Assembly (NCBI GenBank): GCA_023489235.1
Contig: JAMDDE010000020.1
Coordinates: 38,374-72,410 of the forward strand
From: Actinomycetota bacterium
GTDB lineage: Bacteria > Actinomycetota > Acidimicrobiia > Acidimicrobiales > JAMDDE01
DNA: 34,037 nt
Direction: 5' to 3'
Shown: positions 4,601 through 30,454 of the stretch, one piece after another
Layout of the letters: each line of letters starts with the position of its first letter
Position numbering within the stretch: position 1 is the stretch's first letter
Program-made: the position numbers and the translations under genes
Notes under the pieces: model-generated
What the model was told of the DNA's origin: nothing
The model's input: the letters and a program-made list of their open reading frames with translations, nothing else
Database searches by the model: none

Positions 4601-5496
4601 ATGAGGGCTTGACGGAGATCAAGGGCGCTCTTGCCTGCCGTAATTATGCCTATGCGATTCTTTGGTCCAGTAACGGTAATCCTGTCCAAGGAATTAGCGG
4701 CAGAGTAGGCCAACACAGCTGCATGGCGCTCTTCGAATAGATGGCGTTCAATATCAATATTCTTCCCTGGGTAGAAGGTGAAGTCATCCCGCTTCTCGAA
4801 TGGGTGTCCATCAAGGACAAGATCTGGAAGATGGATCTCTGGCCAGCCCTTGTCCAAATGCACTGTAGAGCCACTGTCGCACAAAGCGGACACCAGCTTG
4901 AGAGCTACCCAGCAACCACTGAAGCGAGAGATGGCCACTGCATGGGCACCGAGCTCCAACAGACTACGGATATCCGATGGGTAGAGAATCGGTACTCCCA
5001 CCGACTGGTACATGTAGTCCTGCTGGTGCGGCATTGTCGAACTCTTGGCTTCATGATCCTCACCACTCAACAGGACTACCGAACCGTACCTGCTGGTACC
5101 GGCAAAGTTGCCATGACGCAATGCATCTCCACTTCGATCCATACCAGGTCCCTTGCCATACCAAAAAGCAGCTACTCCATCGAAGTTGGAGTGAGGGTAA
5201 TGATCCAGCATCTGAGTGCCGGTTATGGCAGTCATGGCCAGTTCCTCATTAGCACCTGGGCGGTGTATCACGCCCCAACGGGACAGAAGATCCTTATGCC
5301 TTTCGAGAGCGAGGTCGTAACCGGCCAAAGGAGATCCTGGGTAACCACTGATGAACGTTCCTATGCGCAAGCCGTTGGCTGCATCCCTACGGGCCTGGTC
5401 AAGGGGTAATCTAACCAAGGCTTGCATGGCTGGCAGATAAAAGCTGCCCTCCTCTGCTACAAGCCGATCATCCAAGGATACGAGTTCTCTCTCCAT
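1699..5496 (-). CDS. Fused indolepyruvate ferredoxin oxidoreductase family protein (IorA-like TPP domains + ferredoxin-like Cys region + IorB-like gamma domain + C-terminal extension)
   Basis: ORF of about 1265 aa: GTFISGYPGSPLAGYDLAL, CSGCPHSTSTKLAPGQVAWGSPGCHSF, CEGCGDCGRVSNCMSLERVETEFGQ, PGVGGTGVITVNAVLSTAAF, YDQTGAAQKWGQV. Likely ATG at 5496 overlaps the tetR stop (TGATG); the ORF track used an upstream TTG. Confidence 0.93.
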   Translation of the reverse strand: MERELVSLDDRLVAEEGSFYLPAMQALVRLPLDQARRDAANGLRIGTFISGYPGSPLAGYDLALERHKDLLSRWGVIHRPGANEELAMTAITGTQMLDHYPHSNFDGVAAFWYGKGPGMDRSGDALRHGNFAGTSRYGSVVLLSGEDHEAKSSTMPHQQDYMYQSVGVPILYPSDIRSLLELGAHAVAISRFSGCWVALKLVSALCDSGSTVHLDKGWPEIHLPDLVLDGHPFEKRDDFTFYPGKNIDIERHLFEERHAAVLAYSAANSLDRITVTGPKNRIGIITAGKSALDLRQALMDMGIDDDLLVDSGIAILELGMIYPLNSSIVSQFARGLELLIVIEEKRGFVETQVKEALFTNGVHSPVVIGKYDEYHRPLFPVEGGMSASLITERLAPTLLKYLTRPEVVQRRLAELEPLRRHKDSIQLKRTPNYCSGCPHSTSTKLAPGQVAWGSPGCHSFASVITQPERHIVAMTQFGGEGLPWIGLSPFTDRKHITQNVGDGSIFHSSYLNIRFCVAAGVDITFRILYNGYVANTGAQSPVGQRSVPELCRLLATEGVAHIAILTKHPKSYHPSELPEHTSVHSPVDVVEVAAFLEKKKGVTVLLYDESCANERRRRQKRGIEPPPLTFAYINEEVCEGCGDCGRVSNCMSLERVETEFGQKTRIHPSSCSQDFSCLQGDCPAFTTIKVRPGGGYAKPRPPQLSLSELPSPNDQVRPVGPYRVILPGVGGTGVITVNAVLSTAAFLDGWQVDSYDQTGAAQKWGQVLSSLVLTPLSGYPLSIGSSPSPGLVPPVSVSPDVGIAKADLCIALDLVSSVDPSNLDRCNPAKTSVVANSGTFLTGELVRDISKPMPDELMLDELSRVAKGGVVHGVDALSLSEDLFGDHMMANFICVGVAWQAGFLPMSAEAIEEAIRLNGTLVDKNIQAFRYGRLFVHDRSRLEEILAGTNPYGKYSSRSRRTRVPVLNDAAGGVGTSSSAQAAPGSTSAPGSTSAPGSRDRDNREISSLVLQDADPLKRALADSLANLSPAQRDAYGRLLPRVGVFGSAEVAAKIELRIAELIAYQSVSYAEEYLKFLEHVHEREQSVTPGRYEIQAAAAFSLFKLMAYKDEYEVARLYLKPRFRQQLQATFSSPRHVTYHLHPPLLRAMGMNRKIELGEWFDPAFRVLKAMRRLRGTSLDIFGRTELRRLERSLPEWYKNSLDRALKRLDQLNYALVVEIAQVPDLIRGYESIKLAAIARAKDRMGVLLEQIEGEPVVLARGNR
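2504..2553. repeat. 18-bp in-frame tandem repeat (about 2.8 copies) encoding a GSTSAP linker
   Basis: GATCCAGGTGCTGAGGTG at 2504 and 2522, then GACCCAGGTGCTG at 2540; encodes APGSTSAPGSTSAPGS between the gamma-like domain and the C-terminal domain of the fused IOR. Confidence 0.85.
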
Positions 5497-6188
5497 CAAC
5501 GACTCTTCTCGGCTGCTCTCGAAGCCCTAGGGGATCCAGTCTCCTGTCTGTATGTCTCAGATTCATCATGAGTTCGGCGCACAACCCCTAGGATCATGTC
5601 CACACATGCCTCGGCAAAGGCCTCTGGATCATCCCTGTCAGGATCGAACCACTTATATATCCAGCTGGTCATCCCTAATATAGCCTGCGCACCATAGCGA
5701 GCCTTCATCGACGGAAGAGCCCCATCCTCCACTGCCGAAGCAACTGCCTCCTGATAGACATGGAGATACTGCCTTTCCTTGGCCAGTATCTCACTATCAT
5801 AATTGCGCGCCAGTCTCGGTCGTTGATCGAAGAATACAGTAAAAAAGCTCGGTTCTGATGCCACCATGATTGCTTGATGTCTTATCAAGGCTGCCAACCG
5901 TTCTTCGGGGTCATCAATGGACAGACATTTCTCCACACTGCTCAAAGCAGTGGAAATGGTCTTGTCGAAGATACGATAAAGCAACTCCGCCTTGGAGTGA
6001 ACGTAGTAGTACAGACTAGCCTTTCTCAAGTTGAGCTCTGCGGCCACATCATCGAGGGATCCGGCATCGTATCCTTTCTCTCTGAAGACCTTGGCAGCAG
6101 TCTCCACTATCTCGGCCAATCGAGCCTTGTACTCTACGCTTGGTTCGCGATTCCGCGGCCTACCTGGACGTCGTGCACTTGTCTGCAA
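5496..6188 (-). CDS. TetR/AcrR family transcriptional regulator
   Basis: 230 aa; N-terminal HTH ETAAKVFREKGYDAGSLDDVAAELNLRKASLYYYVHSKAELLYRIF. Start uncertain (TTG at 6188, or a nearby upstream start after GGGGAGG). Translationally coupled to the IOR gene. Confidence 0.92.
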   Translation of the reverse strand: MQTSARRPGRPRNREPSVEYKARLAEIVETAAKVFREKGYDAGSLDDVAAELNLRKASLYYYVHSKAELLYRIFDKTISTALSSVEKCLSIDDPEERLAALIRHQAIMVASEPSFFTVFFDQRPRLARNYDSEILAKERQYLHVYQEAVASAVEDGALPSMKARYGAQAILGMTSWIYKWFDPDRDDPEAFAEACVDMILGVVRRTHDESETYRQETGSPRASRAAEKSR

Positions 6189-7088: not shown

Positions 7089-7128
7089 GTCTAAGTTGCA
7101 GATCCGCTGACGGATCTGCAACTTAGAC
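7089..7128. terminator. Perfect 18-bp-arm inverted repeat between the bcr-type genes and the hemerythrin gene (terminator or processing hairpin)
   Basis: GTCTAAGTTGCAGATCCG-CTGA-CGGATCTGCAACTTAGAC; arms 7089-7106 and 7111-7128; includes the stop codon of the upstream gene. No downstream U tract. Confidence 0.6.
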
Positions 7129-7935
7129 GAGTGCTTCCTCCTCGGCAAGCCTTCTAGCCCGTTGTCTACCGAGAACTGCAGCGCCCAGAGCCAACACGAA
7201 CTGAGGCATATCCCCAGGTGGGACGTTTACCTCTGCCTTGAGCTTCTCTTTCAGCACCTGAGCCATGCTCTCGAAACGAAGTATCCCGCCCACCAAAGTG
7301 AACTCAGGCTCCATCTGCACACGCTTCATCAACTGAACAGACTTGGAGACCAGCGAGACTATAGCCCCGTGCATGATGTCAGCAGGAGCTACCCCTTGGG
7401 AGAGGTGGTTGATCACTTCAGCTTCGGCGAATACGGCACATACCCCAGAGATGGGGACATCCTCCTTCGAAGTTGCCGCCACTGGGCCTATCTCCTCCGT
7501 ATCGAACCCCATGTAGCGAGCAGTCTTCTCCAGGAATGCCCCAGTTCCGGCAGCACATTTGTCGTTCAATCGGAACGACTTCACTCGCCCATGCTCATCC
7601 AACCTGGTAGCCTTCATTGTCTGGCCGCCAACATCGAGAATAGTATGGGTATTGGGATACAGGAAACGTGCTCCCCAGGCAACTGCAGTAAGGTCGGTGA
7701 CGTTGATCCGTCTTACACCTACTTGAAAACGCCCGTATCCCGTAGCCGCTATGTAGGACAGGTCTCCTCGATCCAAGCCAGCCTGAACCAATGCCCTCTC
7801 CAGGGCCTCCTCTCCTACTTTGTCCAACTTGAACCCTGTGCGAATCATCGCCTTGCCGACGATGGAATCATCATCGGACAAGATGACCGCCTTGGTATAG
7901 GTAGAACCTACGTCTATTCCTGCTGTGTAACTCAT
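7123..7935 (-). CDS. Class I benzoyl-CoA reductase ATPase subunit (BcrD/BzdQ-like; BadF/BadG/BcrA/BcrD ATPase family)
   Basis: 270 aa: [81 protein letters not shown] ATPase with cluster-binding Cys motifs; fourth gene of a four-subunit set. Confidence 0.85.
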
Positions 7936-8756
7936 GCCGTAACTCCTGTCAACTTAGTTGGAGACTGACGACTCTTGATATGATCCATAGCAAACAAAGC
8001 TGCTCCAAGAGCTCCCATGTAATGCGACTCTTCACTCACATGCACCGGGAAACCGAGAAGATCCTCTATGGCCTTTACCATACCTATGTTCTTGGCTACT
8101 CCACCAGTAAAAGCAACCTCTCTTTCGATTCCCACGCGGCGTAGAAGTCCTAATGCCCTTTGTGCCACCGACTGGTGCACGCCAAGCAAAATATCCTCTA
8201 CTTTCTTGCCTTTGCCTAACCAAGAAAGAATTTCCGACTCAGCGAAGACCGTACAGGTAGTAGAGATCTTGACTGGCTTATCCGACCGGAGAGCAGTGGG
8301 TCCGAGATCATCCAAGGGTATCTCCAGGGCTGCTGAGGCACCTCCGAGGAATCTCCCTGTTCCAGCAGCGCACTTATCGTTCATGCTGAAATCGAGGATT
8401 TCGCCGTTGGGACTTACCTTGATAGCCTTGGTATCCTGTCCTCCCATGTCCAGTACCGTTCGCGTGTCCGGGAACATGTGGACTGCACCGCGACCATGAC
8501 AAGAAATCTCTGTGGTCTGAGTATCGCCGAAGGTCACCTTATAGCGGCCATATCCTGTGCCAACGATGAAACCGACTCCCTCTTTCTCCTCGTGAATATC
8601 CCCATCGGCTAAGGCGAGCTCATAGGCGCGCTCGGCAGCAATGGTCACATTGGCACCTGTATCTATGAGAGCTCTACCCACTATGCGGAGATCTTCATCG
8701 ATTATAATAGCCTTGGTTTGAGTGGAGCCTACATCAACTCCTGCTGCATACGGCAT
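7932..8756 (-). CDS. Class I benzoyl-CoA reductase ATPase subunit (BcrA/BzdP-like; BadF/BadG/BcrA/BcrD ATPase family)
   Basis: 274 aa: [84 protein letters not shown]; 4-nt overlap with the next gene. Confidence 0.86.
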
Positions 8757-8785
8757 ATGCTTCCTCCTCTGTTCCGATCTTGAGA

Positions 8786-10129
8786 CTAACTAGCACGAGC
8801 GGCCATCAACTTGCGAGTGGCGAGACCCTCGAAGAAGGCATCCACTCGGTTCTTCAGCTGAGCCTCCGAAACCACCCGAGGATCCATGTGGTCGGAGTCG
8901 AGCAGCAATGTACCTACGTCTGCATCTTTCATTACTGCCAACCTGTTGTCTGCCAGTCCAGTAGAGACTGTCCGGCAGGACTTGATGGCATGGTAGACGA
9001 CACCATCGATACCATAAGGTCCCACCATGTCCACCAGCATCTTGTCCGAGTAGAACATGGAGTCCATCGCATCCCTCACCGTAATGAGCACACCTTCAGC
9101 CAGACTCTCCAGCGGATTGTCCAGATCGTACTCGAATCCGGTGTTCGTACCCCCAGAGGCGAACCACAGATAGCTGGAGCCCACGAACTCACCGCCCCAC
9201 TCGCTGAACATCTCCCCGAACCGCCTGAATATCGGATAGCAGGGCACTCCTACGAAAACCAGCCGGTACTTCTCCTCATGAAGCGTGCCGATACCGTTAG
9301 CAGCCTTATACTCGAGCTCCTCCACCAAATCTTCGAAGTACTCAGCTCCTTCCTTACGCCCTCTGAACCCATTGGCAACGCCCAAGTAGACGGTCCCATC
9401 GGTCACTGCATTGTAAAGAGCTGGGACAGCTTTGTTCAGTTCGACTACTCGCTTGAACCCTACGCTAAGCCTATTGGCGTAGTCCATGTTCTCCCGCAGC
9501 TTGTCTATGTCGAACCTCTTGCCGGTCACCCCTTCGAGAACATTGATGAGCTCCCTCAACTGGCCTTCGACATAGAGACGATCATTCTCGAAGTCTTCAT
9601 TACCTCTCCAGGTTTGCTTGCCTTCTGCGCGAGTACCAGGCACGTCAAGGGTGAAGATAGGTATGTTGTACATCCTCTCCCATATCTCCGCCCATTTGAT
9701 ATAGGTATTACAGGCATTGGTGTAAACAGCAACCGCAGGTCGAGGTATGCGACCCATAGGATGCTCGCCATGTCGCATCTGCAAGCCAACATCTGCCTTG
9801 ACATAACCGCATACGTCAGAGGCATAGCCATAGTCTTCGGCATCGGCTATGTAGGACTCCGACACATGCCTGACCGCCGTCTGTAGACCATTTATCTCAG
9901 GGAACACCGTGTGCAAGTCAAAAGAGCGCAACAGCTCTGCAAGGCTTCCCATCACGAACACGTAGGCAGACTTCTCGCCCCTCTCTTCCGAGGTAGTCAG
10001 TTCCTTGTACCACTCACGAAAAAGACGGTTGCCTTCCTTGTTCCCCCGACCAACTATAGAGTCAGCACCATCATGGCCTGTCGATGCGGACTGATTCACA
10101 CTCTGCTCACTGCTCATTGCAACCTCCAT
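8786..10129 (-). CDS. 2-hydroxyacyl-CoA dehydratase D-component family protein; benzoyl-CoA reductase subunit B (BcrB/BzdO-like)
   Basis: 447 aa: [93 protein letters not shown]; position 2 of a CBAD-ordered set. Confidence 0.84.
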
Positions 10130-10146
10130 CTCTCAACTCCCCCCTC

Positions 10147-11313
10147 TCACACGAAGAGAAGGTTTTCTATGAACGTCTCCAACTGAATTTGCAAGTTGTC
10201 GAAGCTAGTCATGGACTCCTCGAACTCGCTGACGAAGTAGGGAATTCCCTCCTCGTCGAGCGCCTTGATGTACGCCACCTGCTCATCAAGGCCTGGCTCG
10301 CACATCTTGGCTGCAGTGATAATTGCCGCATCCGCCCCGGAGTTCCTTATCCGCTCCAAGAGCATCTTCTCCTTGGGCTTGCGCAGATCATGCTGAACCG
10401 GGCTGTAACTGGAGTGCTCCAGGTATGCATTAGCCAAGTTGGCCAATGGATCGCCCTCCAAGGGCACGTCTTCAGTAATCCAACGCAACCCTATCAAGAG
10501 GTCATCATCGACTATATAGGATGACTGGCCTATGGTATTCAAAAGATCCAAGGGGGGTTGTTCGCAAAATCCACCTTCGAAAACTAGTCGCATCCGATCC
10601 TGTGGCTGGAGATCACGCTTGCCGACAAGATCCAGAGCATACCTGAGTAGCTCGTTATGCTCCTCTCTGGGCACCATCCCGCCTACCGCCATCAATGCAT
10701 ACGCCTCGTCCACTGCCAAAAGCCACGGGGTGTCCCGCCTGATGGCGTACATCTCTCTCAACAACCGCCTATTCTCGTTGAAGATAGCTATTGCTGACCG
10801 CAGATCCTCATCGGTGATCCTTCGTCCAGCCACATCCTCTACTCCCCTCTTCAGTCGGTCATACTCACCGCGTAAGTATGACTGGGCATAAGCAGAGTTG
10901 GCATTTTGGGGAAGATATAGGATCTCGCAAGGGTAGTCGAAGTTCCTTCCGTATACGGCAGCAAGATTCCTCGCGGAATCGCATATTGGATGCGAAACGA
11001 ACATGTCCAGTACGACCTTCTCGGTCAAGGATAGTTCCAAGGAGGTCTTCACGATGGAGCACAGATAACCCCCGAAGTGAGCATCTGCTCCCCTTGCCTC
11101 GAAAGAACCGCCGCGTATGAGGAGAGGAAGCATCCCTGCTGCTGCCACGATCTCCTCTGGGAAGTAAACCTGGAAATGGCCTACTACCTTACCGCCATCC
11201 TCACGCCAGCGTTTGACCGTAGGATAGTCTACGTCTTCCACGAGGTCACGGCAGTATTGAATAACCCCCTCTATCGGCAGTCCCTGCCAACCTTCCATTA
11301 CACGAACAGCCAT
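10147..11313 (-). CDS. 2-hydroxyacyl-CoA dehydratase D-component family protein; benzoyl-CoA reductase subunit C (BcrC/BzdN-like)
   Basis: VVGHFQVYFPEEIVAAAGMLPLLIRGG, DMFVSHPICDSARNLAAVYG, EGGFCEQPPLDLLNTIGQSSYIVDDDLLIGLRW, DAAIITAAKMCEPGLDEQ. ORF track start at 11367; ATG at 11313 preceded by GTGAGG is a likelier start. Confidence 0.84.
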   Translation of the reverse strand: MAVRVMEGWQGLPIEGVIQYCRDLVEDVDYPTVKRWREDGGKVVGHFQVYFPEEIVAAAGMLPLLIRGGSFEARGADAHFGGYLCSIVKTSLELSLTEKVVLDMFVSHPICDSARNLAAVYGRNFDYPCEILYLPQNANSAYAQSYLRGEYDRLKRGVEDVAGRRITDEDLRSAIAIFNENRRLLREMYAIRRDTPWLLAVDEAYALMAVGGMVPREEHNELLRYALDLVGKRDLQPQDRMRLVFEGGFCEQPPLDLLNTIGQSSYIVDDDLLIGLRWITEDVPLEGDPLANLANAYLEHSSYSPVQHDLRKPKEKMLLERIRNSGADAAIITAAKMCEPGLDEQVAYIKALDEEGIPYFVSEFEESMTSFDNLQIQLETFIENLLFV

Positions 11314-11449
11314 AGCAACCTCACGCTCTTTCTCTCTAATCCACCTGGTACACTCCCAGGACTGCACCCACCCCCTGGATAGTTAGACGGTAAAAGCCTC
11401 GGCACATCCGGTCCTGGCTACCGGCTATCTCTCCAATGGAGTTTAATCT

Positions 11450-12007: not shown

Positions 12008-13351
12008 TCAGACAAGCTTCCGTTTGTCCACCACTCGTTGAGCTTTTCCTCCCTCTGAACGGGGCAGCTTACCCGGTTCGAGTAGGGTAACCTTCGCTGA
12101 AACCCCCACGTTCTCTCGAATGGAGCGCTGGGTGCGATCACGGACCCTGCGAAGCAGGTGATCAGCCTCCACGATCTCATCGGAGAGGAACTCAGCCGCT
12201 ACCTTGTGAAAGGCGTCCTCGGACAACTCTACCTCTACTTCTAGTTCGTCCAAGGTGCCGGTACGATCCACCAGGAGTCTGTAGTATGGGGCCAACTCGT
12301 CTATTCCGCCAAAAGCAGCCTCTATCTGGCTCGGGTAGACATTGATTCCCCTTATGATGAGCATATCGTCAGTTCTACCCTTGACCATGGCCATTCTTGT
12401 AAGAGTACGACCACAGCTGCATGCAGAGTGGTTCAGACTAGTGATGTCCCCGGTCCAATAACGAATCAAGGGAAGAGCTTCCTTGGTGAGAGTAGTGATC
12501 ACCAATACGCCTTCTTCGCCATCGGGTAACTGTTCTCCAGTATCTGGATCCACGATCTCGGCAAGAAAGTGATCCTCGTTGATATGAGAGCCAGAACGCT
12601 CCTCGACGCACTCGAAGGATACCCCGGGACCGATAATCTCTGAAAGCCCGTACACATTTACGCTTTTTACTCCAAGACGGCTATCTATCTCGGCGCGCAT
12701 AGTCTCTGTCCACGGTTCGGCTCCCACCAAGGCATACCGCAGAGGGATGTCCTCCGGGTCCACTCCTTGTCGTGCAAACTCAGTAGCAATGGTAAGAGCA
12801 TAGCTAGGAGTGCAAGAAAGTACTTGCGCGCCGAAGTCAACCATCAACATGACCTGACGTTCGGTCATTCCCGTGGAGGCAGGGACTACTACCATACCTA
12901 GGCTCTCACCACCAGCGTGGAAGCCCAAGCCACCCGTAAAGAGCCCATAGCCATAAGCGTTGTGCAGTATCATGCCTGGTTCTGCACCACCACCGGCAAG
13001 AGCTCGAGCACATACCTTCCCGAACAGCTCCAAATCTGCACGGGTGTACCCTACGACAGTGGGTTTGCCAGTAGTCCCCGAGGAGGCATGTATCCTGGCT
13101 AGCTCCTTTGTACTCCTAGCGAACAGACCGAACGGATAGGTGTCCCTGAGGTCGGTCTTCTTGGTGAACGGTAACTTGGACAGGTCGGAAACGCTGTGGA
13201 TATCACTGGGCTTGATGCCCGCTTCTTCCAGCCGTTCCCGCATAGGAGCAACCTGTTCATACACCCTGGACACCATCTCATGCAGTCGTGCAGACTGTAG
13301 TTCGATCATTGCCTCTCGACTCATTGTTTCAACATCAGGTTCGAATATCAC
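12008..13351 (-). CDS. Phenylacetate-CoA ligase family protein (PaaK-type aryl-CoA ligase)
   Basis: 447 aa: IHASSGTTGKPTVVGYT, NAYGYGLFTGGLGFHAGGESLG, YGLSEIIGPGVSFEC, IRYWTGDITSL, GRTDDMLIIRGINVYPSQIE. ATGA overlap with upstream gene. Confidence 0.93.
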   Translation of the reverse strand: MIFEPDVETMSREAMIELQSARLHEMVSRVYEQVAPMRERLEEAGIKPSDIHSVSDLSKLPFTKKTDLRDTYPFGLFARSTKELARIHASSGTTGKPTVVGYTRADLELFGKVCARALAGGGAEPGMILHNAYGYGLFTGGLGFHAGGESLGMVVVPASTGMTERQVMLMVDFGAQVLSCTPSYALTIATEFARQGVDPEDIPLRYALVGAEPWTETMRAEIDSRLGVKSVNVYGLSEIIGPGVSFECVEERSGSHINEDHFLAEIVDPDTGEQLPDGEEGVLVITTLTKEALPLIRYWTGDITSLNHSACSCGRTLTRMAMVKGRTDDMLIIRGINVYPSQIEAAFGGIDELAPYYRLLVDRTGTLDELEVEVELSEDAFHKVAAEFLSDEIVEADHLLRRVRDRTQRSIRENVGVSAKVTLLEPGKLPRSEGGKAQRVVDKRKLV

Positions 13352-14541
13352 CTTTGTGCCCCTCCTGTGAACACTTTGGACGCCCTGACGAACGCCTTTC
13401 CCTCCATCAGCTTTCGAGCAGTTCTTGTGTAAGCAGCCTTTTGTACAACAAGACCTCCTGCTTCATCCATCGAGACATTAGCCATGACCACATTTCGACC
13501 GGTAGGATGGCCTATGCGAACCTCCTCTGCACTGCCATCGCCCAGGTAGGCGAGAGTTCCTGGCAATTTAGCTGCTACGGCAACGGTTACACTGGCTGTA
13601 CCAGGAAAGGCTTTGTGCAGGGCTAGAGGTTGGCCTCCAATCACCTGAGCAACGAAATCTATCTCCTCCATTCTTACCTGGCCGTCACCGACCACCGTTG
13701 AATAACTGTGAGCATCCTCCAAGAGCACCGGGATAGGGACCAAGCCCCCTTCGGGAACGCCCAACATACGTGCTACTGCTCGTTGCAAGGAGTCCACCTT
13801 GGCAATTTGGGTATCAGAGGGGAAGGAGGGGATCTCTCCTGGCTCGAACCCAAGATCGGATGCCCTTGCCAGTACACACAAGTTGGCAATGTCCACAATG
13901 GAAACCGGCACCGTACCGACCAGAGGAACATCGACCTCGTCTACGGTCGAGCCCGTTGGCAAAAGCTTACCGGTAACGGATCCAACTGTTTCTCGGTAAT
14001 CGAGCAGTATCTCAGCTCCTGTACCAGGGACTCCATCAACTTGGCAGTCCCCTTCTACAAGTGGCCTGCCCTCCGCTACAGGCACAGTAGCCACGAACAC
14101 CTTGTGGGTATTGGTATTGTGAACTCTCACCGTGGTCAATGGCGATACTGGATCCACATAACCATGCTCAATGGCGTACACCCCTACTGCAGCCGATATG
14201 TTGCCACAGTTCATATCGGTATTTACCTGTGCCTTGGTTATACTTACCTGTGCAAACGTATAGTCTAGGTCGGCATCCTCGATACTTGGAGGCCCAATCA
14301 TGGCAACCTTGCTAGTAAGCAAGTCCGCGCCCCCAAGCCCATCTATCTGGCGAGGATCAGGACTCCCCATGAGAGCAAGCAAGAACTGCTCCAGTTCTGC
14401 CTCATCGCTCGGCAAAGCCAGCCTAGGGAGGAACACTCCCTTGGAGGTACCACCTCGTATGATTGCACAATCAACGGCTAAGAGCTCCCCCTCTCGTGAA
14501 AGAGAAGGGGAGCTCCCTTCAGTTGCTGGCCGCATGATCAA
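13348..14541 (-). CDS. PrpF-family protein (methylaconitate / methylitaconate (Mii) / oxalomesaconate delta-isomerase family)
   Basis: 397 aa: IIRGGTSKGVFL, QIDGLGGADLLTSKVAMIG, VNTDMNCGNISAAVGVYAIEHGYV, VRVHNTNTHKVFVA; translationally coupled on both sides. Confidence 0.9.
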   Translation of the reverse strand: MIMRPATEGSSPSLSREGELLAVDCAIIRGGTSKGVFLPRLALPSDEAELEQFLLALMGSPDPRQIDGLGGADLLTSKVAMIGPPSIEDADLDYTFAQVSITKAQVNTDMNCGNISAAVGVYAIEHGYVDPVSPLTTVRVHNTNTHKVFVATVPVAEGRPLVEGDCQVDGVPGTGAEILLDYRETVGSVTGKLLPTGSTVDEVDVPLVGTVPVSIVDIANLCVLARASDLGFEPGEIPSFPSDTQIAKVDSLQRAVARMLGVPEGGLVPIPVLLEDAHSYSTVVGDGQVRMEEIDFVAQVIGGQPLALHKAFPGTASVTVAVAAKLPGTLAYLGDGSAEEVRIGHPTGRNVVMANVSMDEAGGLVVQKAAYTRTARKLMEGKAFVRASKVFTGGAQR

Positions 14542-15680
14542 GCCACAAGGATATTGACCGTGCAGGCAGTGCCTTCTACGCCTTGTGCTTTCCCGCCTCG
14601 GCAGTGCGCCACCCCTACTTTCGCATTTTGAATTTGGCGTTCGCCTGCCTCTCCTCGGAGTTGCTTGACCAACTCCACTACTTGGGCAACACCAGTGGCG
14701 CCAAGGGGATGACCCTTGCCCAAAAGACCGCCGGAGGCATTGACCGGGAAGGAACCGTTGATATCCATCTCTCCCTTCCCTACTCTGGCCACATACTCAC
14801 CGTGGGGCACAAGACCCATTCCTTCCACCCGGAGGGCCTCGGCAATGCTGAAGCAGTCATGCACCTCAGCAAAGTCGATGTCGCCTGGGCCTACTCCCGA
14901 TTGCTCATAAGCTGTTTGAGCAGTTCGCCACGTGAGGTCCTCCACGGTCATATCGGCTAGACCCACCTCGGTACGACCACTCTTCAAAGCGGTGCCAGCT
15001 AGCTTGATAGCCCTACTGCTCCCTAGTTGATGGAGCTTCGCCTTGCTCACCATGACCACAGCTGCAGCACCATCACTAACTGGGGCACACTCGTGCAGGT
15101 GGAGTGGATCGGCTATCAAACGCCCTTGCATGACCTCTTCCAGAGTAACCGGCTTCTTGAAGTGAGAGAGAGGGTTCATGGCCGCGTTCTTCTTGTTCTT
15201 CACGGCTATCTGAGCAATTTGCTCAGAGGTAACCCCGTATTGAACCATGTAACGCTGGGCTCTCATGGCATAGATGCCCGGCATGGTCAGCCCTATCTGA
15301 GCCTCCACGTCACTAGGATCGGGAGCAAAAGCTCCTCTGAACAAATTGGTCAAATGCTCGACGCCTAACGCTAGGACGATGTCGTAGGCACCAGCTCGAA
15401 GAGCCATGGCTGCATCCCATATTGCAGTAGATCCCGACGAACACGCATTCTCTACGTTGTCAATTGGGATACCCGACAACCCCGCTGCATAAAGAGCACG
15501 CTGTCCCATAGCCATACCTTGGTATACATGGCCAACCCATGCAGCCTCTATGTCTTGCCGACTAACTCCTGCATCGGCAAGAGCTAAATTAACCGCCTCT
15601 GCACCCAGATCAGCAGCGGTCTTGTCCGGATGCTTGCCAAATGGCGTCATCCCAATACCTAATACATATACTTCTTCCAT
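14538..15680 (-). CDS. SCP2/lipid-transfer-type thiolase (BbsB-like candidate)
   Basis: 380 aa: VENACSSGSTAIWDAAMALRAG, ECAPVSDGAAAVVMVS, EVHDCFSIAEALRVEGMGL, NASGGLLGKGHPLGATGVAQ, VGVAHCRGG. Paired with a DUF35 gene. Confidence 0.9.
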   Translation of the reverse strand: MEEVYVLGIGMTPFGKHPDKTAADLGAEAVNLALADAGVSRQDIEAAWVGHVYQGMAMGQRALYAAGLSGIPIDNVENACSSGSTAIWDAAMALRAGAYDIVLALGVEHLTNLFRGAFAPDPSDVEAQIGLTMPGIYAMRAQRYMVQYGVTSEQIAQIAVKNKKNAAMNPLSHFKKPVTLEEVMQGRLIADPLHLHECAPVSDGAAAVVMVSKAKLHQLGSSRAIKLAGTALKSGRTEVGLADMTVEDLTWRTAQTAYEQSGVGPGDIDFAEVHDCFSIAEALRVEGMGLVPHGEYVARVGKGEMDINGSFPVNASGGLLGKGHPLGATGVAQVVELVKQLRGEAGERQIQNAKVGVAHCRGGKAQGVEGTACTVNILVA

Positions 15681-15844
15681 TGCCTATACTCCCTTCAACA
15701 AGGCCATTCAAAGAATTGACGCCTCCCTGGAAAACCTCCAAAGGAAACCTCGCACCTTTCATCACTCGCATCAACATCCATCCAACAACAACACAGCCCC
15801 TACCCTCTCAATCTCTCCGGAGGGATCGAGACTGGCCCACGCCT

Positions 15845-15856
15845 GGGGTCGACCCC
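15845..15856. other. Perfect 12-bp palindrome GGGGTCGACCCC with adjacent CCACC-GACT-GGTGG inverted repeat in the thiolase/DUF35 intergenic region
   Basis: Read directly: tggggtcgacccccaccgactggtggtg. Confidence 0.7.
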
Positions 15857-15871
15857 CACCGACTGGTGGTG

Positions 15872-16270
15872 TCACAATCTGGCATGGGGAATCGAGACTG
15901 GCTCACCATTTTCCACTCTGGGGCCGGATCCCATGACAATGTCCACCTGACTGCCTATGGGGGGCGGCTCCTCTCCGTCATATGGCATCAATACCCGTAC
16001 CTGTTCGGGAAAGTCCACATAGACAAGAATGTAGGGGGTCTTGAACTCGGGAGTTGACTGCCTCACCACCGTAAAGGTGTAGACGGTTCCCTCGCTAGCG
16101 AGCAAGATGTCGTCCAGTGGACTACTTCCATCAGCTGGGCAAATGCTTCGGGGAGGTTGGAACACCCCTCCACAAGTCGGGCATTTGCTAGCCCGCAGAC
16201 GTACCTTGCCATCCTCGATTACATAGTTGACCACCTTCTCGGGGGCTTCCGCCTCATCTACCTTGGTCAT
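15872..16270 (-). CDS. DUF35 OB-fold / zinc-ribbon acyl-CoA-associated protein (BbsA-like candidate)
   Basis: 132 aa: KVRLRASKCPTCGGVFQPPRSICPADGS, GTVYTFTVVRQSTPEFKTPYILVYVDFPEQVRVLM; adjacent to thiolase as in DUF35-thiolase pairs. Confidence 0.9.
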   Translation of the reverse strand: MTKVDEAEAPEKVVNYVIEDGKVRLRASKCPTCGGVFQPPRSICPADGSSPLDDILLASEGTVYTFTVVRQSTPEFKTPYILVYVDFPEQVRVLMPYDGEEPPPIGSQVDIVMGSGPRVENGEPVSIPHARL

Positions 16271-16421
16271 TGCACTCCTCCTTAATCAATAATGTCTATA
16301 CAACAACTACTCTTCACAGCAGAGATCCTTAGACGAACAACCTGACAACCTTGCGTGGTCACTGAGGACGGTAGATCGCTCACCAACAGAGGCTCTCCGT
16401 CAAACATCCCTTGGACCGTCC

Positions 16422-17168
16422 TCAATAGGCCCCCACGCTACGACCACCGCATACATAGAGAACCTGACCGGTTATGTACCACGAATCATCGTCGGCAAAG
16501 AAGGCTACAGCGTGACCAATATCTGCTGGCCCTCCTATGCGCCCAACAGGAACGGTCTTCACCAGTCTCTCTTGAGCCTCTTGGCTCAATCCACGGAACA
16601 ACGGAGTGTCTACTAGGCCAGGAGCTACGACATTTGCAGTTATTTGGTACTTAGCGAACTCCAAGGCAAGCGTGCGAGTAAAACTGACCACCCCTCCTTT
16701 GGATGCAGAGTAGTTAGCTTGTCCTGCTCCGCCCAACCAAGCACGAGACCCTATGTTCACTATACGTCCGTAGTTTGCCTCCATCATATGCTTAACAGCA
16801 GCCTGGGTGCAGAGGAACTGAGATTTCAAGTTGATCCTGAGTACCTCGTCCCAGTCCTCTTCACTCATCTTCACCAGCCATTTATCACGCGCAATACCCG
16901 CATTGTTGACCAGGATGTCCACTTGGCCGTAGGTATCCTTGGCATAGTCCACCAAACCGTCGGCACCAACCTTGGTGGAGATATCGCCAACGTAGTAGCC
17001 CACCTCGAAACCGGCTGCCTTCATCTCGTCAGCAAGAGCCGAGACCCGAGGTTCATCTATGTCGTTCAAGACCACTCTGGCACCGCCGACAGCCAAGCGA
17101 CGAGCAATGCCTTCCCCAATTCCTTGACCTGAACCGGTAACAATAGCTACACGATCTTTTATGCCCAT
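16422..17168 (-). CDS. Short-chain dehydrogenase/reductase (FabG-like; candidate 3-hydroxyacyl-CoA dehydrogenase)
   Basis: 248 aa: IVTGSGQGIGEGIARRL, VNNAGIARD, NIGSRAWLGGAGQANYSASKGG, ITANVVAPGLVDTPL. Confidence 0.93.
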   Translation of the reverse strand: MGIKDRVAIVTGSGQGIGEGIARRLAVGGARVVLNDIDEPRVSALADEMKAAGFEVGYYVGDISTKVGADGLVDYAKDTYGQVDILVNNAGIARDKWLVKMSEEDWDEVLRINLKSQFLCTQAAVKHMMEANYGRIVNIGSRAWLGGAGQANYSASKGGVVSFTRTLALEFAKYQITANVVAPGLVDTPLFRGLSQEAQERLVKTVPVGRIGGPADIGHAVAFFADDDSWYITGQVLYVCGGRSVGAY

Positions 17169-17175
17169 TTGATCA

Positions 17176-17958
17176 TCACCTTCCTATGAACTTAGGAGAG
17201 CGCTTCTCCACGAAAGCGCGCATGCCTTCTTCTCTGTCATGGGTACCACGAAGGAAAGCATGGCAAACTGCCTCGAACTCCAGACCTGTAGCCAGATCCG
17301 AGCTAGTAGCCACGTACACGCTGCGCTTGATCCGGTCAATTGACAATGGGGCCTTACTGGCAACCTTTTTCCCGAATTCCACAGCAGCAGAAACCGCCTC
17401 TCCCTCTGCCACCACTTTGTTGACGATTCCGAGTCTGTATGCCTCATCTGCATCGATGCGATCACCACTGAACATAAGCTCCATGGCTATCGCAGGACCC
17501 ACCAGCCTCGTCAACCTCTGGGTTCCACCAGCCCCAGGCATGCTGCCCACATTGGCTTCAGGGAATCCGAACTTGGCAGTAGCATCAGCGATGCGCAGGT
17601 CACACGCCAAAGCCAACTCGAAACCCCCTCCCAGTACATAGCCGGCTAATGCAGCTATGATGGGTTTGGAAACCTCCTCCATGTAAGAGAACAAACCTCT
17701 TATGATCTCACCAAGAGGATCCCGAGCGCCGCCCGTATCGTACTCTGCTACTCTGCCCTTTATGTCTGCCCCGACTGAAAATGCCTTGGGCTGTCCAGCC
17801 AACACTATTGCACGACAGTCCACCTCCCGATCAAAGTCCGAGAGAAGCTCTCGCAACTCAGCCAGCATCTCAGGGGTAAGAGCATTGAGTGCCTCTGCCC
17901 TGTTGATGGTCACAACCGCCACTCCGTCAGCAAAGCTCGACTGCACCAAGTCGCTCAC
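17176..17958 (-). CDS. Enoyl-CoA hydratase/isomerase family protein (crotonase)
   Basis: 260 aa: [46 protein letters not shown]; both canonical hydratase Glu positions present. Confidence 0.93.
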
Positions 17959-18150: not shown

Positions 18151-19362
18151 TTATTCATCCGACTTCTCCCACTGCACGACTACTCCATCTGCAAGCCAGC
18201 GATCCACTAGCTCGGTTGGAACCTCGGCCACTTCGGTCAGTATCTCTACGCTGTGCTCACCAGGCAAAGGGGCAGCACTTCGAGCACGTGCCGGCGTAGA
18301 AGACAGTCTGGCGGGCATCCCCACTCCAGGCATCTTCCCCAGTATCGGGTGGTACACCACTGGGAAGCGTTGCTCGTCGTCAAGATGGTCAACTCGGGCC
18401 AGAGACTCATAGTCGTAGATCTTGGCACAGACCACATCGGCACTCTCCAACCTCTCCACCCACTCGTCAGTGGAGGCAGTCTTGAAGACTCTGGAAAGCT
18501 CCTCGAACAGTTCACGGCGATTGGCCACCCGTTGGGCTACATCTATGAAACGCGGATCACTAGCCAGTTCAGGTCGTCCTATCACCTCCGTGAACTTCCT
18601 CCAGCGGTCCGGCCAATAGGCGGCAACCATGATATAGCCGTCCATGGTGGGGAAAGCTTCGTTAGGGGCTGCATACGGTGCGGCGCTGCCCTGCCTCCCA
18701 GGAGAACGTCCGCTAGCCTGGAACATCGACCAAGGCACTGTCTGGAACATGAACATGGAGTCCAGCAAGGAGACATTAACTCTCTGTCCTCGACCGGTCC
18801 CTTGACGCGCCAACAAGGCCAACAGTATTCCCTGCACTGCGACCAAGGCCCCTACGGTATCAGCCGCTGGTACCCCAACTTTTACCGGTGCACCGTCAGG
18901 TTCTCCAGTAACACTCATTATTCCGGACATGGCCTGTACGATGCCGTCAACGCCCGGTTTGTCACGCCATGGGCCATCCTGACCAAAGGCGGTGATCGAA
19001 CACCATATGACTTCAGGGCGCTCAGCACTCAAGCTCTCGTAGGAGAGACCTAGGCGATCCAGTACGCCTGGGCGGAAACTCTCCAGGACTACATCACAGA
19101 CACGCGCAAGTCTGCGAAGGACCTCCACTCCTTCGCCATGCTTGAGATTGATCACTATAGAGCGCTTGTCCCTATTCATTCCCAGGTAAGAAGCAGCTTG
19201 ATCTTGGATGAACGGAGGACCGAGTTTACGCCCCCATTCTCCACCAGGTGGGTCTACCTTGATGATCTCGGCACCGTATTCACCGAGCACCATCCCGGCA
19301 ATAGGTCCTGCTGCCCCTTGAGAGAGATCCAGCACTCTGATACCTTCAAGCGCTGAGCGCAC
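18151..19362 (-). CDS. Family III CoA-transferase (CaiB/BaiF; candidate aryl-dicarboxylate CoA-transferase)
   Basis: 403 aa: LEGIRVLDLSQGAAGPIAGMVLGEYGAEIIKVDPPGG, DKRSIVINLKHGEGVEVLRRLARVCDVVLESFRPGVLDRLGL, VGVPAADTVGALVAVQG. GTG start overlaps the KorC-like gene. Confidence 0.93.
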   Translation of the reverse strand: MRSALEGIRVLDLSQGAAGPIAGMVLGEYGAEIIKVDPPGGEWGRKLGPPFIQDQAASYLGMNRDKRSIVINLKHGEGVEVLRRLARVCDVVLESFRPGVLDRLGLSYESLSAERPEVIWCSITAFGQDGPWRDKPGVDGIVQAMSGIMSVTGEPDGAPVKVGVPAADTVGALVAVQGILLALLARQGTGRGQRVNVSLLDSMFMFQTVPWSMFQASGRSPGRQGSAAPYAAPNEAFPTMDGYIMVAAYWPDRWRKFTEVIGRPELASDPRFIDVAQRVANRRELFEELSRVFKTASTDEWVERLESADVVCAKIYDYESLARVDHLDDEQRFPVVYHPILGKMPGVGMPARLSSTPARARSAAPLPGEHSVEILTEVAEVPTELVDRWLADGVVVQWEKSDE

Positions 19363-20029
19363 TCCCTGCTACTCCCTCCTTGTCCACTCCACCACCGTTG
19401 TCAGCTACACGAGCCAACCTGCCAACTTGATTACCTGACAGCCGCCATGAAGGAGCATGGGCGTCGAGGTACTCGTCCATCATCTGCCATCCAAGCTTGA
19501 TTGCCTGTCGATTCTTCTCCTTGAAAGCTGGAGGCGACCTTCTCTCTGCAACCTCCGAAAGGCTCTCCACGGATATTGCCTCTATCAATCTAGCCAAGGA
19601 GGCTGCACAGATCATATTGGTTACCACTTTCGCACCTATGCGCACCTTGGCTGCCTCTTCGAAAGGTAGAGCGATGATGCTCTCCCGCTCAGGACCGCTC
19701 ACATCGACCAACCCAACTCTGTCCACATCCACTACGAGGCCCACATCCTTTTGGCCAACGAGTCTCTCCCCAAATCTAGTCCACGCTTTGTCCGAAAGGA
19801 CAAGACATAGATCTGGCACTTGGAACTGGGGATTGGCAATTGGGTACAGGGAGAGAGAAAGATCCGCCCTAGTGGCTCCTCCTCTAGCTTCTGGACCATG
19901 CTCCTGAAGCATGGTGGCATAGAGCTCAGAGCTCAACGCTGCCTCGGCAAGAACGGTAGCCGCCAAGGCAATTCCCTGACCACCCGAGCCACTGAGTCTG
20001 ACATTAACTCTGTTAGCAGCCGAAACCAT
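19346..20029 (-). CDS. 2-oxoacid:ferredoxin oxidoreductase gamma subunit (KorC-like)
   Basis: 227 aa: NVRLSGSGGQGIALAATVLAEAAL, MLQEHGPEARGGATRADLSLS; follows KorA/KorB. Confidence 0.87.
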   Translation of the reverse strand: MVSAANRVNVRLSGSGGQGIALAATVLAEAALSSELYATMLQEHGPEARGGATRADLSLSLYPIANPQFQVPDLCLVLSDKAWTRFGERLVGQKDVGLVVDVDRVGLVDVSGPERESIIALPFEEAAKVRIGAKVVTNMICAASLARLIEAISVESLSEVAERRSPPAFKEKNRQAIKLGWQMMDEYLDAHAPSWRLSGNQVGRLARVADNGGGVDKEGVAGSALSA

Positions 20030-20955
20030 CAGGCATCCCTCCCCTGGTCTGTACTGTACTGTCCAGTCTCATTGACCTCGGAGCTACGAGCACCCTTGAT
20101 CCCCATGGTCTCCTCCAAGGTAAGCCGACTCGAGCGATAGAGAAGGCCGGTGGGAAGGACGGGCCTCACTGGCTGTGCGTCGGCAATTGGCTCTACGGTT
20201 GGCCTTCTGGCCAAGTCGGCATCGATGGACGGCTCGTAACGTGCCTGACTCATGAGCATGTCTGCTCCACCGCCGAAGCGGTTGGTTCGACCGAAGTACT
20301 CCGTGCAGTCACTCATCACCTCAATGAAGGAGAACCCTACGTGATCCAGTGCCTGGCCGAAAACCTCCCCGAAGACTTGGGGACGGTAGCTCTGTGCTCT
20401 GGCCACGAAGGTCGCCCCAGCTGCCTTGGCCAACTCAGCAGCATCAAAGGAGTGCTGGGTATTGCCTTGTGGAGTAGTAGTGGTGTAGGCACCCAAGACA
20501 GTGGTGGGAGCAGCCTGACCTCCGGTCATTCCGTATATCTCGTTGTTCAACAGAACACAGGTCAGGTCTATGTTCCTCCGGGCAGCATGGATGAGGTGAT
20601 TGCCCCCAATGGACAGTCCGTCTCCGTCTCCGGTTATGACTATTACGGTCAGTTCCGGTCGAGCGAGCTTCAACCCGGTGGCAAATGAGAGAGGCCGCCC
20701 ATGAGTCGTATGAAGGGTGCAGGCGTCTATGTACCCTATGATCCTTGAGGAACAGCCAATTCCAGCCACAAAGGCTACATTGTCCAAATTGTCATATCGT
20801 TCCGACAAGACGGACAACATGGCATCCAGAATGATCCCATGACCACAGCCTGGACAGAGCATATGCGGCATCATGGCATGACGTAGCAGCCGCTTCTCCT
20901 TGCCTGTAACAGGAACTCTGGTGACGGTGGCCGCATCGGTGATTGCTGTGCTCAT
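20029..20955 (-). CDS. 2-oxoacid (2-oxoglutarate):ferredoxin oxidoreductase beta subunit, TPP-binding (KorB-like)
   Basis: Start re-assigned to ATG 20955 (MSTAITDAATVTRVPV), overlapping the KorA stop (ATGA). Motifs MLCPGCGHGIILDAML, GIGCSSRIIGYIDACTLHTTHGRPLSFATGLKLA, ITGDGDGLSIGGNHLIHAARRN. Confidence 0.92.
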   Translation of the reverse strand: MSTAITDAATVTRVPVTGKEKRLLRHAMMPHMLCPGCGHGIILDAMLSVLSERYDNLDNVAFVAGIGCSSRIIGYIDACTLHTTHGRPLSFATGLKLARPELTVIVITGDGDGLSIGGNHLIHAARRNIDLTCVLLNNEIYGMTGGQAAPTTVLGAYTTTTPQGNTQHSFDAAELAKAAGATFVARAQSYRPQVFGEVFGQALDHVGFSFIEVMSDCTEYFGRTNRFGGGADMLMSQARYEPSIDADLARRPTVEPIADAQPVRPVLPTGLLYRSSRLTLEETMGIKGARSSEVNETGQYSTDQGRDA

Positions 20956-22229
20956 TCTCCACCTACCTTCTTTTCGATGTCTACCTCTGTTGCACCTATC
21001 TTTGCTGTGGTGCTTGCAGGTACGACCATGCGTGCTTGGTTCTTCCCCTCTGTCCAGGAGACCGCCTCGGCCAGAGGTACCCTCCTGCTTGCAGCCGCGG
21101 GAAGACCATCCGCTACTTCCAAAGCATGGTCGATCACTTCCTCTGTAGTGATGACCGCTCCTCCTGCCTTGAGCAAGGGATGGAGGAGAGCATCGTTGTG
21201 CGCCACCCTCTCCACCTCCCTGGCCCACTGGCCTCTGTTCATCTCTACGACCACCACCGCCTCTGCCTTGGCCAAAGCCTCTTTCAACAACCCATCCTGA
21301 ACTGGCCAGAGCAGTCGTGGACGCCAAAGTCCCGCTTTTACACCCTTGCTTCTAAGGACATCCACCGCTGCTTTGGCTGTTCGCCCAGTTATCCCATAAG
21401 AGACAATGACAAGATTGGCATCGTCCATCAAATAGCTCTCCGGTTCAACCAGCTCCGTGACTACTTGAACCTTCTTCTCCAATCTCTCCAACAGGGCAGC
21501 TACTATCGATGTGTCGGTGGTAGGGAACCCTCGTTCATCATGCATCAGCCCAGTTACATGGAACCTATAGCCTCTGCCGAAGTCGGGCAGAGGGGCTACC
21601 AATGCCTCATTGGCTCTGTAAGGCTCAAAGGATGCCCCTGGTGGCTGAGTTGGACGAGGACGTGAGCCAATGCTACGAGGATCGGGTGAGTTGAGCTCGA
21701 CACCCTCTCTCATGTGGCCTACTACCTCATCGAACAATACGGTGACCGGGGTGCGCAAAGACTCCGCTAATCCGAAGGCTTGGATGGTGAGGTCGTACAC
21801 CTCTTGGACAGAGGAGGGAGCGAGTGCCACTGCAGCCCTGTCTCCATGGGACCCCCACTGAGCCTGCATGACATCACCCTGGGAAGGGAGCGTAGGTAGT
21901 CCTGTACTTGGTCCTCCTCTCATGACATCCACAACTACACAGGGGATCTCTGCCAAGTAAGCATAACCAATATGCTCCTGCATCAGGGAGAACCCCGGTC
22001 CCGATGTGGCCGTCATGGCCCTTGCTCCACCCAAGGATGCGCCCAGTACAGCTCCTAAAGAAGCCATCTCATCTTCGGCTTGCAAGAATACCCCCCCATG
22101 CTTGGGAAGCAGTCGAGCCATCGCCTCAGCGATCTCCGAGGACGGAGAGATGGGGTAGCCAGCAAAGAATCGACATCCTGCGGCTATGGCACCCTCTGCA
22201 CACGCCTCGTTGCCTTGTATCAATCTCAT
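20952..22229 (-). CDS. 2-oxoacid (2-oxoglutarate):ferredoxin oxidoreductase alpha subunit (KorA-like)
   Basis: Start re-assigned to ATG 22229 (MRLIQGNEACAEGAIAAGCRFFAGYPISPSSEIAEAMA) behind GGGAGGAG; TATSGPGFSLMQEHIGYAYLAEIPCVVVDVMRGGPSTGLPT. Confidence 0.92.
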   Translation of the reverse strand: MRLIQGNEACAEGAIAAGCRFFAGYPISPSSEIAEAMARLLPKHGGVFLQAEDEMASLGAVLGASLGGARAMTATSGPGFSLMQEHIGYAYLAEIPCVVVDVMRGGPSTGLPTLPSQGDVMQAQWGSHGDRAAVALAPSSVQEVYDLTIQAFGLAESLRTPVTVLFDEVVGHMREGVELNSPDPRSIGSRPRPTQPPGASFEPYRANEALVAPLPDFGRGYRFHVTGLMHDERGFPTTDTSIVAALLERLEKKVQVVTELVEPESYLMDDANLVIVSYGITGRTAKAAVDVLRSKGVKAGLWRPRLLWPVQDGLLKEALAKAEAVVVVEMNRGQWAREVERVAHNDALLHPLLKAGGAVITTEEVIDHALEVADGLPAAASRRVPLAEAVSWTEGKNQARMVVPASTTAKIGATEVDIEKKVGGE

Positions 22230-22255
22230 GTAAAATCTCCTCCCTTGTACCGCCG

Positions 22256-30451: not shown

Positions 30452-30454
30452 TGC

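What the first reader, a model, noticed from the sequence alone, without database searches (positions are those of the whole stretch)
7123..11367. Complete four-subunit class I ATP-dependent benzoyl-CoA reductase in bcrCBAD/bzdNOPQ order
Two different 2-hydroxyacyl-CoA dehydratase D-component proteins plus two different BadF-type ATPases, in the order C-B-A-D, distinguish this from a simple 2-hydroxyacyl-CoA dehydratase with a single activator. Both ATPase subunits are short (270-274 aa), which from memory resembles the Azoarcus (Bzd) subtype. If the host is an actinobacterium, as gene style hints, this would be an unusual phylum for the enzyme.
Basis: partly seen in the sequence, partly recalled or inferred. 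Interest (0 to 1): 0.62.

Follow-up and report, generated by a model that had tools for sequence, protein, structure and literature searches.

The report
Actinobacterial MBR-type benzoyl-CoA reductase operon
This uncultured actinobacterium carries a complete four-gene operon for an ATP-driven enzyme that very probably strips the aromaticity from benzoyl-CoA without oxygen; it belongs to a subtype (MBR) that few cultured bacteria are known to have but that turns up in many uncultured phyla.

Summary
Four intact minus-strand ORFs at 7123-11367 form a tight operon in C-B-A-D order: two different HGD-D proteins and two different BadF-type ATPases. The class I benzoyl-CoA reductase (BCR) reading is well supported, but the Azoarcus Bzd subtype is wrong. 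All four subunits match solved 3-methylbenzoyl-CoA reductase (MBR, Mbd) best (546, 515, 406, 301 bits; BzdN/O 97/86; HadC/B 122/114). Authentic MbdN falls as far short of NCBIfam Bcr/Bzd cut-offs as the window protein, and nests with it in a 92-sequence tree, away from HadC, BzdN and DCCP. The three catalytic-cluster cysteines and catalytic Glu are invariant in 81 sequences; only three of BzdN's six double-cubane cysteines are present. The context is aromatic: a 4-hydroxybenzoyl-CoA reductase with its diagnostic four-Cys loop, IOR, KOR and phenylacetate-CoA ligase in the window; boxBC, an Oah-like ring hydrolase and a BadH-like SDR 10-17 kb outside. The host is an Actinomycetota MAG. A genome scan found 350 relatives; the best 80 span Chloroflexota, Acidobacteriota, Gemmatimonadota and others, and all 66 complete loci keep CBAD order. 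bcrBC was already annotated in one actinobacterial order (PMC12008989). Substrate and activity are untested. New member of a known kind.

The parts
10147..11367 (-). bcrC / mbdN-like gamma subunit (HGD-D); probable true start at 11313
   Evidence: PDB 9g87_B MbdN 546 bits, about 59% identity; Cys103/129/356 (ORF numbering) invariant in 85 sequences
8786..10129 (-). bcrB / mbdO-like beta (catalytic) subunit (HGD-D)
   Evidence: PDB 9g87_A MbdO 515 bits; cluster ligands Cys107/140/385 and Glu78 invariant in 81 sequences; Tyr143 where BzdO has His131
7932..8756 (-). bcrA / mbdQ-like ATPase (alpha)
   Evidence: PDB 9gai_D MbdQ 406 bits; DVGST, DMGGQ, NDKC and TCTVFAE motifs
7123..7935 (-). bcrD / mbdP-like ATPase (delta)
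   Evidence: PDB 9gai_C MbdP 301 bits; DVGST, DVGGQ, NDKC and VCAVFAE motifs
5496..6188 (-). TetR-family regulator next to the operon (MbdR is also TetR-family)
   Evidence: conserved at 60% identity or more beside bcr in 8 of 17 actinobacterial loci; MbdR from PMC4424350
30455..30934 (-). 4-hydroxybenzoyl-CoA reductase gamma (HcrC-like)
   Evidence: TIGR03193 185 bits (cut-off 258); other Mo-hydroxylase gamma models score about the same
28115..30451 (-). 4-hydroxybenzoyl-CoA reductase alpha (HcrA-like, Mo)
   Evidence: TIGR03194 799 bits, best family by about 300 bits (cut-off 994)
27148..28137 (-). 4-hydroxybenzoyl-CoA reductase beta (HcrB-like) with the extra [4Fe-4S] four-Cys loop
   Evidence: PDB 1rm6_B 202 bits, next best 112; four loop cysteines aligned and kept in 9 of 9 actinobacterial neighbours
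19346..22352 (-). 2-oxoacid:ferredoxin oxidoreductase KorA-KorB-KorC (candidate ferredoxin reducer)
   Evidence: KorAB is the ferredoxin reducer for BCR in T. aromatica (PMC9973337)
22256..25383 (-). indolepyruvate:ferredoxin oxidoreductase IorA, IorB (IorB with fused ferredoxin domain)
   Evidence: IorA TIGR03336 680 bits, over cut-off 651; IorA beside bcr in 8 of 80 related loci
12008..13351 (-). phenylacetate-CoA ligase-like PaaK
   Evidence: TIGR02155 573 bits (cut-off 646)
14538..17958 (-). beta-oxidation-type genes: BbsB-like thiolase, BbsA-like OB protein, SDR, enoyl-CoA hydratase

Best explanation
The four genes encode a heterotetrameric, ATP-dependent class I aryl-CoA reductase of the MBR (Mbd) subtype. 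Its ATPase pair (A, D) holds a bridging [4Fe-4S] cluster and uses ATP hydrolysis to push ferredoxin electrons through the cluster of subunit C onto the aqua-[4Fe-4S] cluster of subunit B. That cluster reduces benzoyl-CoA, formed here from 4-hydroxybenzoyl-CoA and perhaps from arylacetates, to a cyclohexadienoyl-CoA. The KOR and IOR enzymes of the same gene block probably supply reduced ferredoxin. An Oah-like hydrolase and a BadH-like SDR just outside the window probably act in opening the ring. Together with boxBC this gives an oxygen-independent route beside an oxygen-dependent one in a facultative actinobacterium. Shown: gene content, order, homology to MBR, cluster-ligand conservation, linkage. 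Inferred: substrate, electron donors, ring-opening steps, activity, facultative lifestyle.
For: All four subunits have MBR chains as best solved relatives by a wide margin. The control MbdN/O/Q/P score like the window proteins on the Bcr models C/B/A/D: 230/221/222/119 against 258/217/207/134 bits. The tree puts MbdN inside the clade that holds the window, split from HadC, BzdN and DCCP at 100/100. Catalytic cluster ligands and Glu are invariant. CBAD order holds in 66 of 66 complete loci; an Oah-like gene at least 55% identical lies in 38 of 80 loci (median distance 812 bp); hcrA in 9 of 17 actinobacterial loci. HcrB carries the 4-HBCR loop. The own-genome flank has boxB and boxC over their curated cut-offs, an Oah-like protein, a BadH-like SDR and ABC-transporter genes; a haem-copper oxidase is present.
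Against: No Bcr/Bzd equivalog cut-off is reached. Subunit B has Tyr where BzdO has His131 and MbdO has Phe, so the fine chemistry may differ. The Oah-like protein scores 196 bits against a 464 cut-off. No canonical Had or boxA was found. No dedicated dienoyl-CoA hydratase was assigned.
Confidence: 0.88

Rival explanations
1. An MBR-subtype reductase whose physiological substrate is a substituted aryl-CoA (for example 3-methyl-, 3-hydroxy- or 3-chlorobenzoyl-CoA) rather than benzoyl-CoA itself.
For: Closest characterised relative is 3-methylbenzoyl-CoA reductase; T. chlorobenzoica converts 3-Cl-benzoyl-CoA to benzoyl-CoA with an ATP-dependent class I BCR (PMC4992971); Tyr143 or Phe in place of His near the cluster.
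Against: A linked 4-hydroxybenzoyl-CoA reductase would deliver plain benzoyl-CoA; the Oah-like gene linked to bcr in at least four phyla fits a standard benzoyl-CoA lower pathway.
Confidence: 0.2
2. A 2-hydroxyacyl-CoA dehydratase (HgdAB, HadBC or FldBC type) with its activator, for amino-acid fermentation.
For: Same superfamily; HadC/HadB and the HgdC/HadI activators are detectable relatives; the window holds arylpyruvate-type oxidoreductases and a CaiB-type CoA-transferase.
Against: Dehydratase loci have one activator gene and about 30% identity to these proteins, as in the R. ruber and Azoarcus KH32C plasmid loci; the bit score to MBR is more than four times higher; tree separation 100/100.
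Confidence: 0.03
3. A Bzd-type (Azoarcus) class I reductase with a double-cubane cluster.
Against: BzdN/BzdO match only at 97 and 86 bits; three of six double-cubane cysteines (36, 263, 293) are replaced by Gln, Leu and Tyr.
Confidence: 0.02

Closest known systems
3-methylbenzoyl-CoA reductase MbdONQP (MBR subtype; PDB 9g87, 9gai, 9gal, 9gba)
   Same: All four subunits are best matches over nearly full length; subunit sizes, cluster-ligand cysteines, catalytic Glu; a TetR-family regulator nearby, as with MbdR.
   Different: About 59% identity in subunit C; C-B-A-D order, whereas the mbd operon of Azoarcus sp. CIB starts with mbdO (PMC4424350); Tyr143 instead of Phe near the cluster; linked to 4-HBCR, IOR and KOR instead of a 3-methylbenzoate-CoA ligase operon.
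Benzoyl-CoA reductase BcrCBAD (Thauera) and BadDEFG (R. palustris)
   Different: TIGR02259, 2260, 2261 and 2263 equivalog cut-offs not met (for example BcrC 258 against 421 bits); subunit A here is 274 aa and matches mainly the C-terminal half of the 432-position BcrA model. Not compared sequence to sequence.
BzdNOPQ (Aromatoleum sp. CIB; PDB 8s02)
   Same: Superfamily, catalytic-cluster cysteines of BzdO, catalytic Glu.
   Different: 86-97 bits only; double-cubane ligands lacking; His131 replaced by Tyr.
4-hydroxybenzoyl-CoA reductase HcrABC (PDB 1rm6)
   Same: The window's Mo enzyme at 27148-30934, with the additional [4Fe-4S] loop in the beta subunit.
   Different: Below the curated equivalog cut-offs (799 against 994 bits for alpha).

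Membership tests
Class I (ATP-dependent) aryl-CoA reductase | Two different HGD-D subunits plus two different BadF-type ATPases in one operon | tested here: met
Class I (ATP-dependent) aryl-CoA reductase | Catalytic subunit with three Cys for the aqua-[4Fe-4S] cluster and the catalytic Glu | tested here: met
   Cys107/140/385 and Glu78 (Glu assigned by the FPE motif), invariant in 81
Class I (ATP-dependent) aryl-CoA reductase | Both ATPases keep nucleotide motifs and two Cys for a bridging cluster | tested here: met
Class I (ATP-dependent) aryl-CoA reductase | ATP-dependent reduction of benzoyl-CoA | not testable with these tools
   needs an enzyme assay
MBR (Mbd) subtype | All four subunits nearest to MbdN, MbdO, MbdQ, MbdP | tested here: met
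   tree (subunit C only). Thauera Bcr and R. palustris Bad were not available for comparison
MBR (Mbd) subtype | Cys pattern of the gamma subunit like MbdN, without the full double-cubane set | tested here: met
   only 3 of 6 BzdN ligands present, pattern shared with MbdN; cluster type inferred from ligands, not measured
MBR (Mbd) subtype | Activity on 3-methylbenzoyl-CoA | not testable with these tools
   needs an enzyme assay
BzdNOPQ subtype | Six Cys of the [8Fe-9S] cluster in subunit N | tested here: not met
   Cys36, 263 and 293 absent
Canonical Bcr equivalogs (TIGR02259, 2260, 2261, 2263) | Score above curated cut-off | tested here: not met
   207/578, 217/487, 134/313, 258/421 bits; authentic MBR also fails
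2-hydroxyacyl-CoA dehydratase | One activator ATPase; closest to HadBC or HgdAB | tested here: not met
   two ATPases; 122/114 bits to HadC/HadB against 546/515 to MBR
4-hydroxybenzoyl-CoA reductase (HcrABC) | Beta subunit with extra four-Cys [4Fe-4S] loop | tested here: met

The most novel reading that the evidence does not exclude
The MBR-like clade of uncultured phyla is a functionally distinct branch of class I reductases: the residue at the BzdO His131 position is Tyr in all 80 compared sequences other than MbdO, and the ring is opened with a linked Oah-like protein that has a C-terminal zinc-ribbon-like segment, in the closest actinobacteria together with an IpdAB-like CoA-transferase-fold pair and a BadH-like SDR. 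That would be a variant of the lower benzoyl-CoA pathway not described for cultured bacteria.
Probability: 0.25. Interest if true: 0.6.

Novelty: new member of a known kind. Interest (0 to 1): 0.4.

Why it matters
Class I reductases are known mostly from facultative proteobacteria. This operon, its 350 relatives in one genome scan and their linkage to an Oah-like gene suggest that MBR-type dearomatisation is widespread in uncultured bacteria. Current equivalog cut-offs miss the MBR subtype: no genome in the host-phylum sample passes, nor does the solved MbdN. The combination with boxBC and 4-HBCR predicts a facultative actinobacterial aromatic degrader that could be tested directly.

Tried and rejected
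Bzd subtype: rejected on scores and missing ligands. Dehydratase: rejected. Plasmid records gave one-activator dehydratase loci and DCCPs where annotated. No Rfam element in the window; promoter and terminator scans at chance level. The IPMS-like protein 25380-26705 could be a Re-citrate or homocitrate synthase; neither family scores nor PDB matches decide. Structure prediction was not run, as solved homologues at about 59% identity make it largely redundant.
Full report
OBSERVATION. The four ORFs are real, intact and in C-B-A-D order on the minus strand, with operon-like spacing (17 bp, 29 bp, 4-bp overlap). The start of C is better placed at 11313 than at 11367, because the solved MbdN aligns from residue 19 of the ORF and a GAGG site precedes that ATG.

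WHICH ENZYME. NCBIfam ranks BcrC and BcrB as best families for the two HGD-D subunits but far below their curated cut-offs (258 of 421 and 217 of 487 bits). The PDB copy explains why. The nearest solved chains are 3-methylbenzoyl-CoA reductase subunits MbdN (546 bits), MbdO (515), MbdQ (406) and MbdP (301), while BzdN/BzdO reach 97/86 and HadC/HadB 122/114. As a control, the MBR sequences read from those alignments were run through the same library: they score 230, 221, 222 and 119 bits on the same Bcr models, as low as the window proteins. So failing the cut-off is a property of the MBR subtype, not evidence against function.

TREE. A maximum-likelihood tree of 92 gamma-type subunits splits a clade of 80, holding the window protein, MbdN and relatives from many phyla, from HadC, BzdN, DCCP and one-activator plasmid dehydratases at 100/100. 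Most of the actinobacterial sequences, including the window, form one group of 16 at 99/92; three other actinobacterial sequences of the clade (L100, L101 and L103) fall elsewhere. Long branches of the outgroups make their own placement unsure, and canonical Bcr and Bad sequences could not be obtained.

ACTIVE SITE. Residues come from the BzdNO structure paper (PMC11971306). Mapped through the printed alignments and counted over relatives, the three cysteines of the catalytic cluster (BzdO 95/128/380 = window B 107/140/385) are invariant in 81 sequences. Glu78 of the FPE motif, taken as the counterpart of BzdO Glu65 by motif because that stretch is not in the printed alignment, is invariant too. 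BzdO His131 corresponds to Tyr143, kept in 80 of 81, the exception being MbdO with Phe. Of the six BzdN double-cubane cysteines only 73, 100 and 327 are kept (window C 103/129/356, invariant in 85); a further Cys268 is also invariant. Both ATPases keep the nucleotide motifs and the two cysteines expected for a bridging cluster.

CONTEXT IN THE WINDOW. The Mo enzyme at 27148-30934 is a 4-hydroxybenzoyl-CoA reductase by homology: its beta subunit matches 1rm6_B at 202 bits against 112 for the next family and keeps all four cysteines of the extra [4Fe-4S] loop, as do 9 of 9 related actinobacterial loci. Upstream genes encode IOR (IorA over cut-off), KOR, a phenylacetate-CoA ligase-like protein, a CaiB-type transferase, a thiolase with BbsA-like partner, an SDR and a hydratase. 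KorAB is the ferredoxin reducer for BCR in T. aromatica (PMC9973337), so KOR, and by analogy IOR, may feed this enzyme; this is inference.

CONTEXT OUTSIDE. About 10-17 kb beyond the start of the window in the same contig (17-24 kb from bcrD) lie boxC and boxB (both over cut-off), an Oah-like protein (best family Oah, 196 of 464 bits), a PF01144 pair that resembles IpdA/IpdB in size and arrangement (inference), a BadH-like SDR (295 of 431 bits), and nearer the window a thiolase and ABC-transporter genes. In the close relative G039 (L010, L017) the box genes, Oah-like gene, PF01144 pair and SDR lie directly around bcrCBAD. A haem-copper oxidase is encoded elsewhere; boxA and a canonical Had were not found.

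DISTRIBUTION. One scan of GTDB genomes found 350 relatives; the best 80 are from Chloroflexota (34), Actinomycetota (17), Acidobacteriota (13), Gemmatimonadota (9) and a few others. All 66 with four genes keep CBAD. An Oah-like gene at 55% identity or more is present in 38, within 3 kb in 35. hcrA is linked in 9 of 17 actinobacterial loci. IorA is linked in 8 of 80; in Gemmatimonadota L075 an IPMS-like gene, IorA and IorB follow bcrD directly, and L067 is similar. In a sample of 397 genomes of the host phylum only 4 have a strong match and none passes TIGR02263.

HOST. The nearest named records are Actinomycetes/Actinobacteria MAGs, several with sample names that suggest acid mine drainage (the reading of the sample names is from memory). 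The order could not be named.

LITERATURE. Class I BCR has been reported in Chloroflexi single cells (PMC5736913), and bcrBC, boxBC and bbsA in actinobacterial UBA5794 (PMC12008989), so the phylum is not a first. I found no paper that assigns these to the MBR subtype or describes the linkage, but the library lacks most subscription journals.

VERDICT. A sound observation with a correct class and a wrong subtype: an MBR-type class I reductase in an actinobacterium, embedded in an aromatic-catabolic region, and a representative of a broad, uncharacterised clade. Activity and substrate remain to be shown.

Noticed in passing
window 25380-26705; L075:14578-18190; L067; L027: An IPMS/homocitrate-synthase-like DRE-TIM protein sits next to IorA-IorB here, and in Gemmatimonadota L075 it follows bcrD directly together with IorA-IorB (it is also near bcr in L067 and L027). 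Role unknown; could be a Re-citrate synthase feeding a ferredoxin-reducing oxidoreductase.
   Followed up: partly
window 30927-32746 and 13348-14541: A LeuCD/DmdAB-like aconitase-family pair and a PrpF / 4-oxalomesaconate-tautomerase-like protein lie in the same block; the reaction they serve in aromatic catabolism is unclear.
   Followed up: no
L015:6504-7568 (own genome, outside the window): The Oah-like ring hydrolase has a C-terminal zinc-ribbon-like segment (about residues 326-353), and homologues at 56-92% identity lie beside bcr in several phyla.
   Followed up: partly
L015:7587-9335: A pair of PF01144 CoA-transferase-fold proteins resembling IpdA/IpdB (steroid ring-cleaving hydrolases) is next to the Oah-like gene and, in G039/L017, beside bcr.
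   Followed up: partly
window BcrB residue 143 and BcrC residue 268: Subtype signatures: Tyr for the BzdO His131 in 80 of 81 sequences, and an extra invariant Cys268 in the gamma subunit.
   Followed up: partly
L100 (G068) and L101 (G115): Two other genomes of the host phylum carry a sister lineage (C 55-57%, B 47-48% identity; TIGR02263 314 and 302 bits) that could be another class I subtype.
   Followed up: no
window 1699-5499: A second, fused 1266-aa indolepyruvate ferredoxin oxidoreductase (PRK13030 family, over cut-off) beside the bcr operon, in addition to split IorA/IorB.
   Followed up: no
window 6647-7063: Hemerythrin-domain protein (PF01814) directly downstream of bcrD, also present beside bcr in other actinobacterial loci (L021, L022, L032, L041, L050); possibly oxygen handling for an oxygen-sensitive enzyme.
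   Followed up: partly
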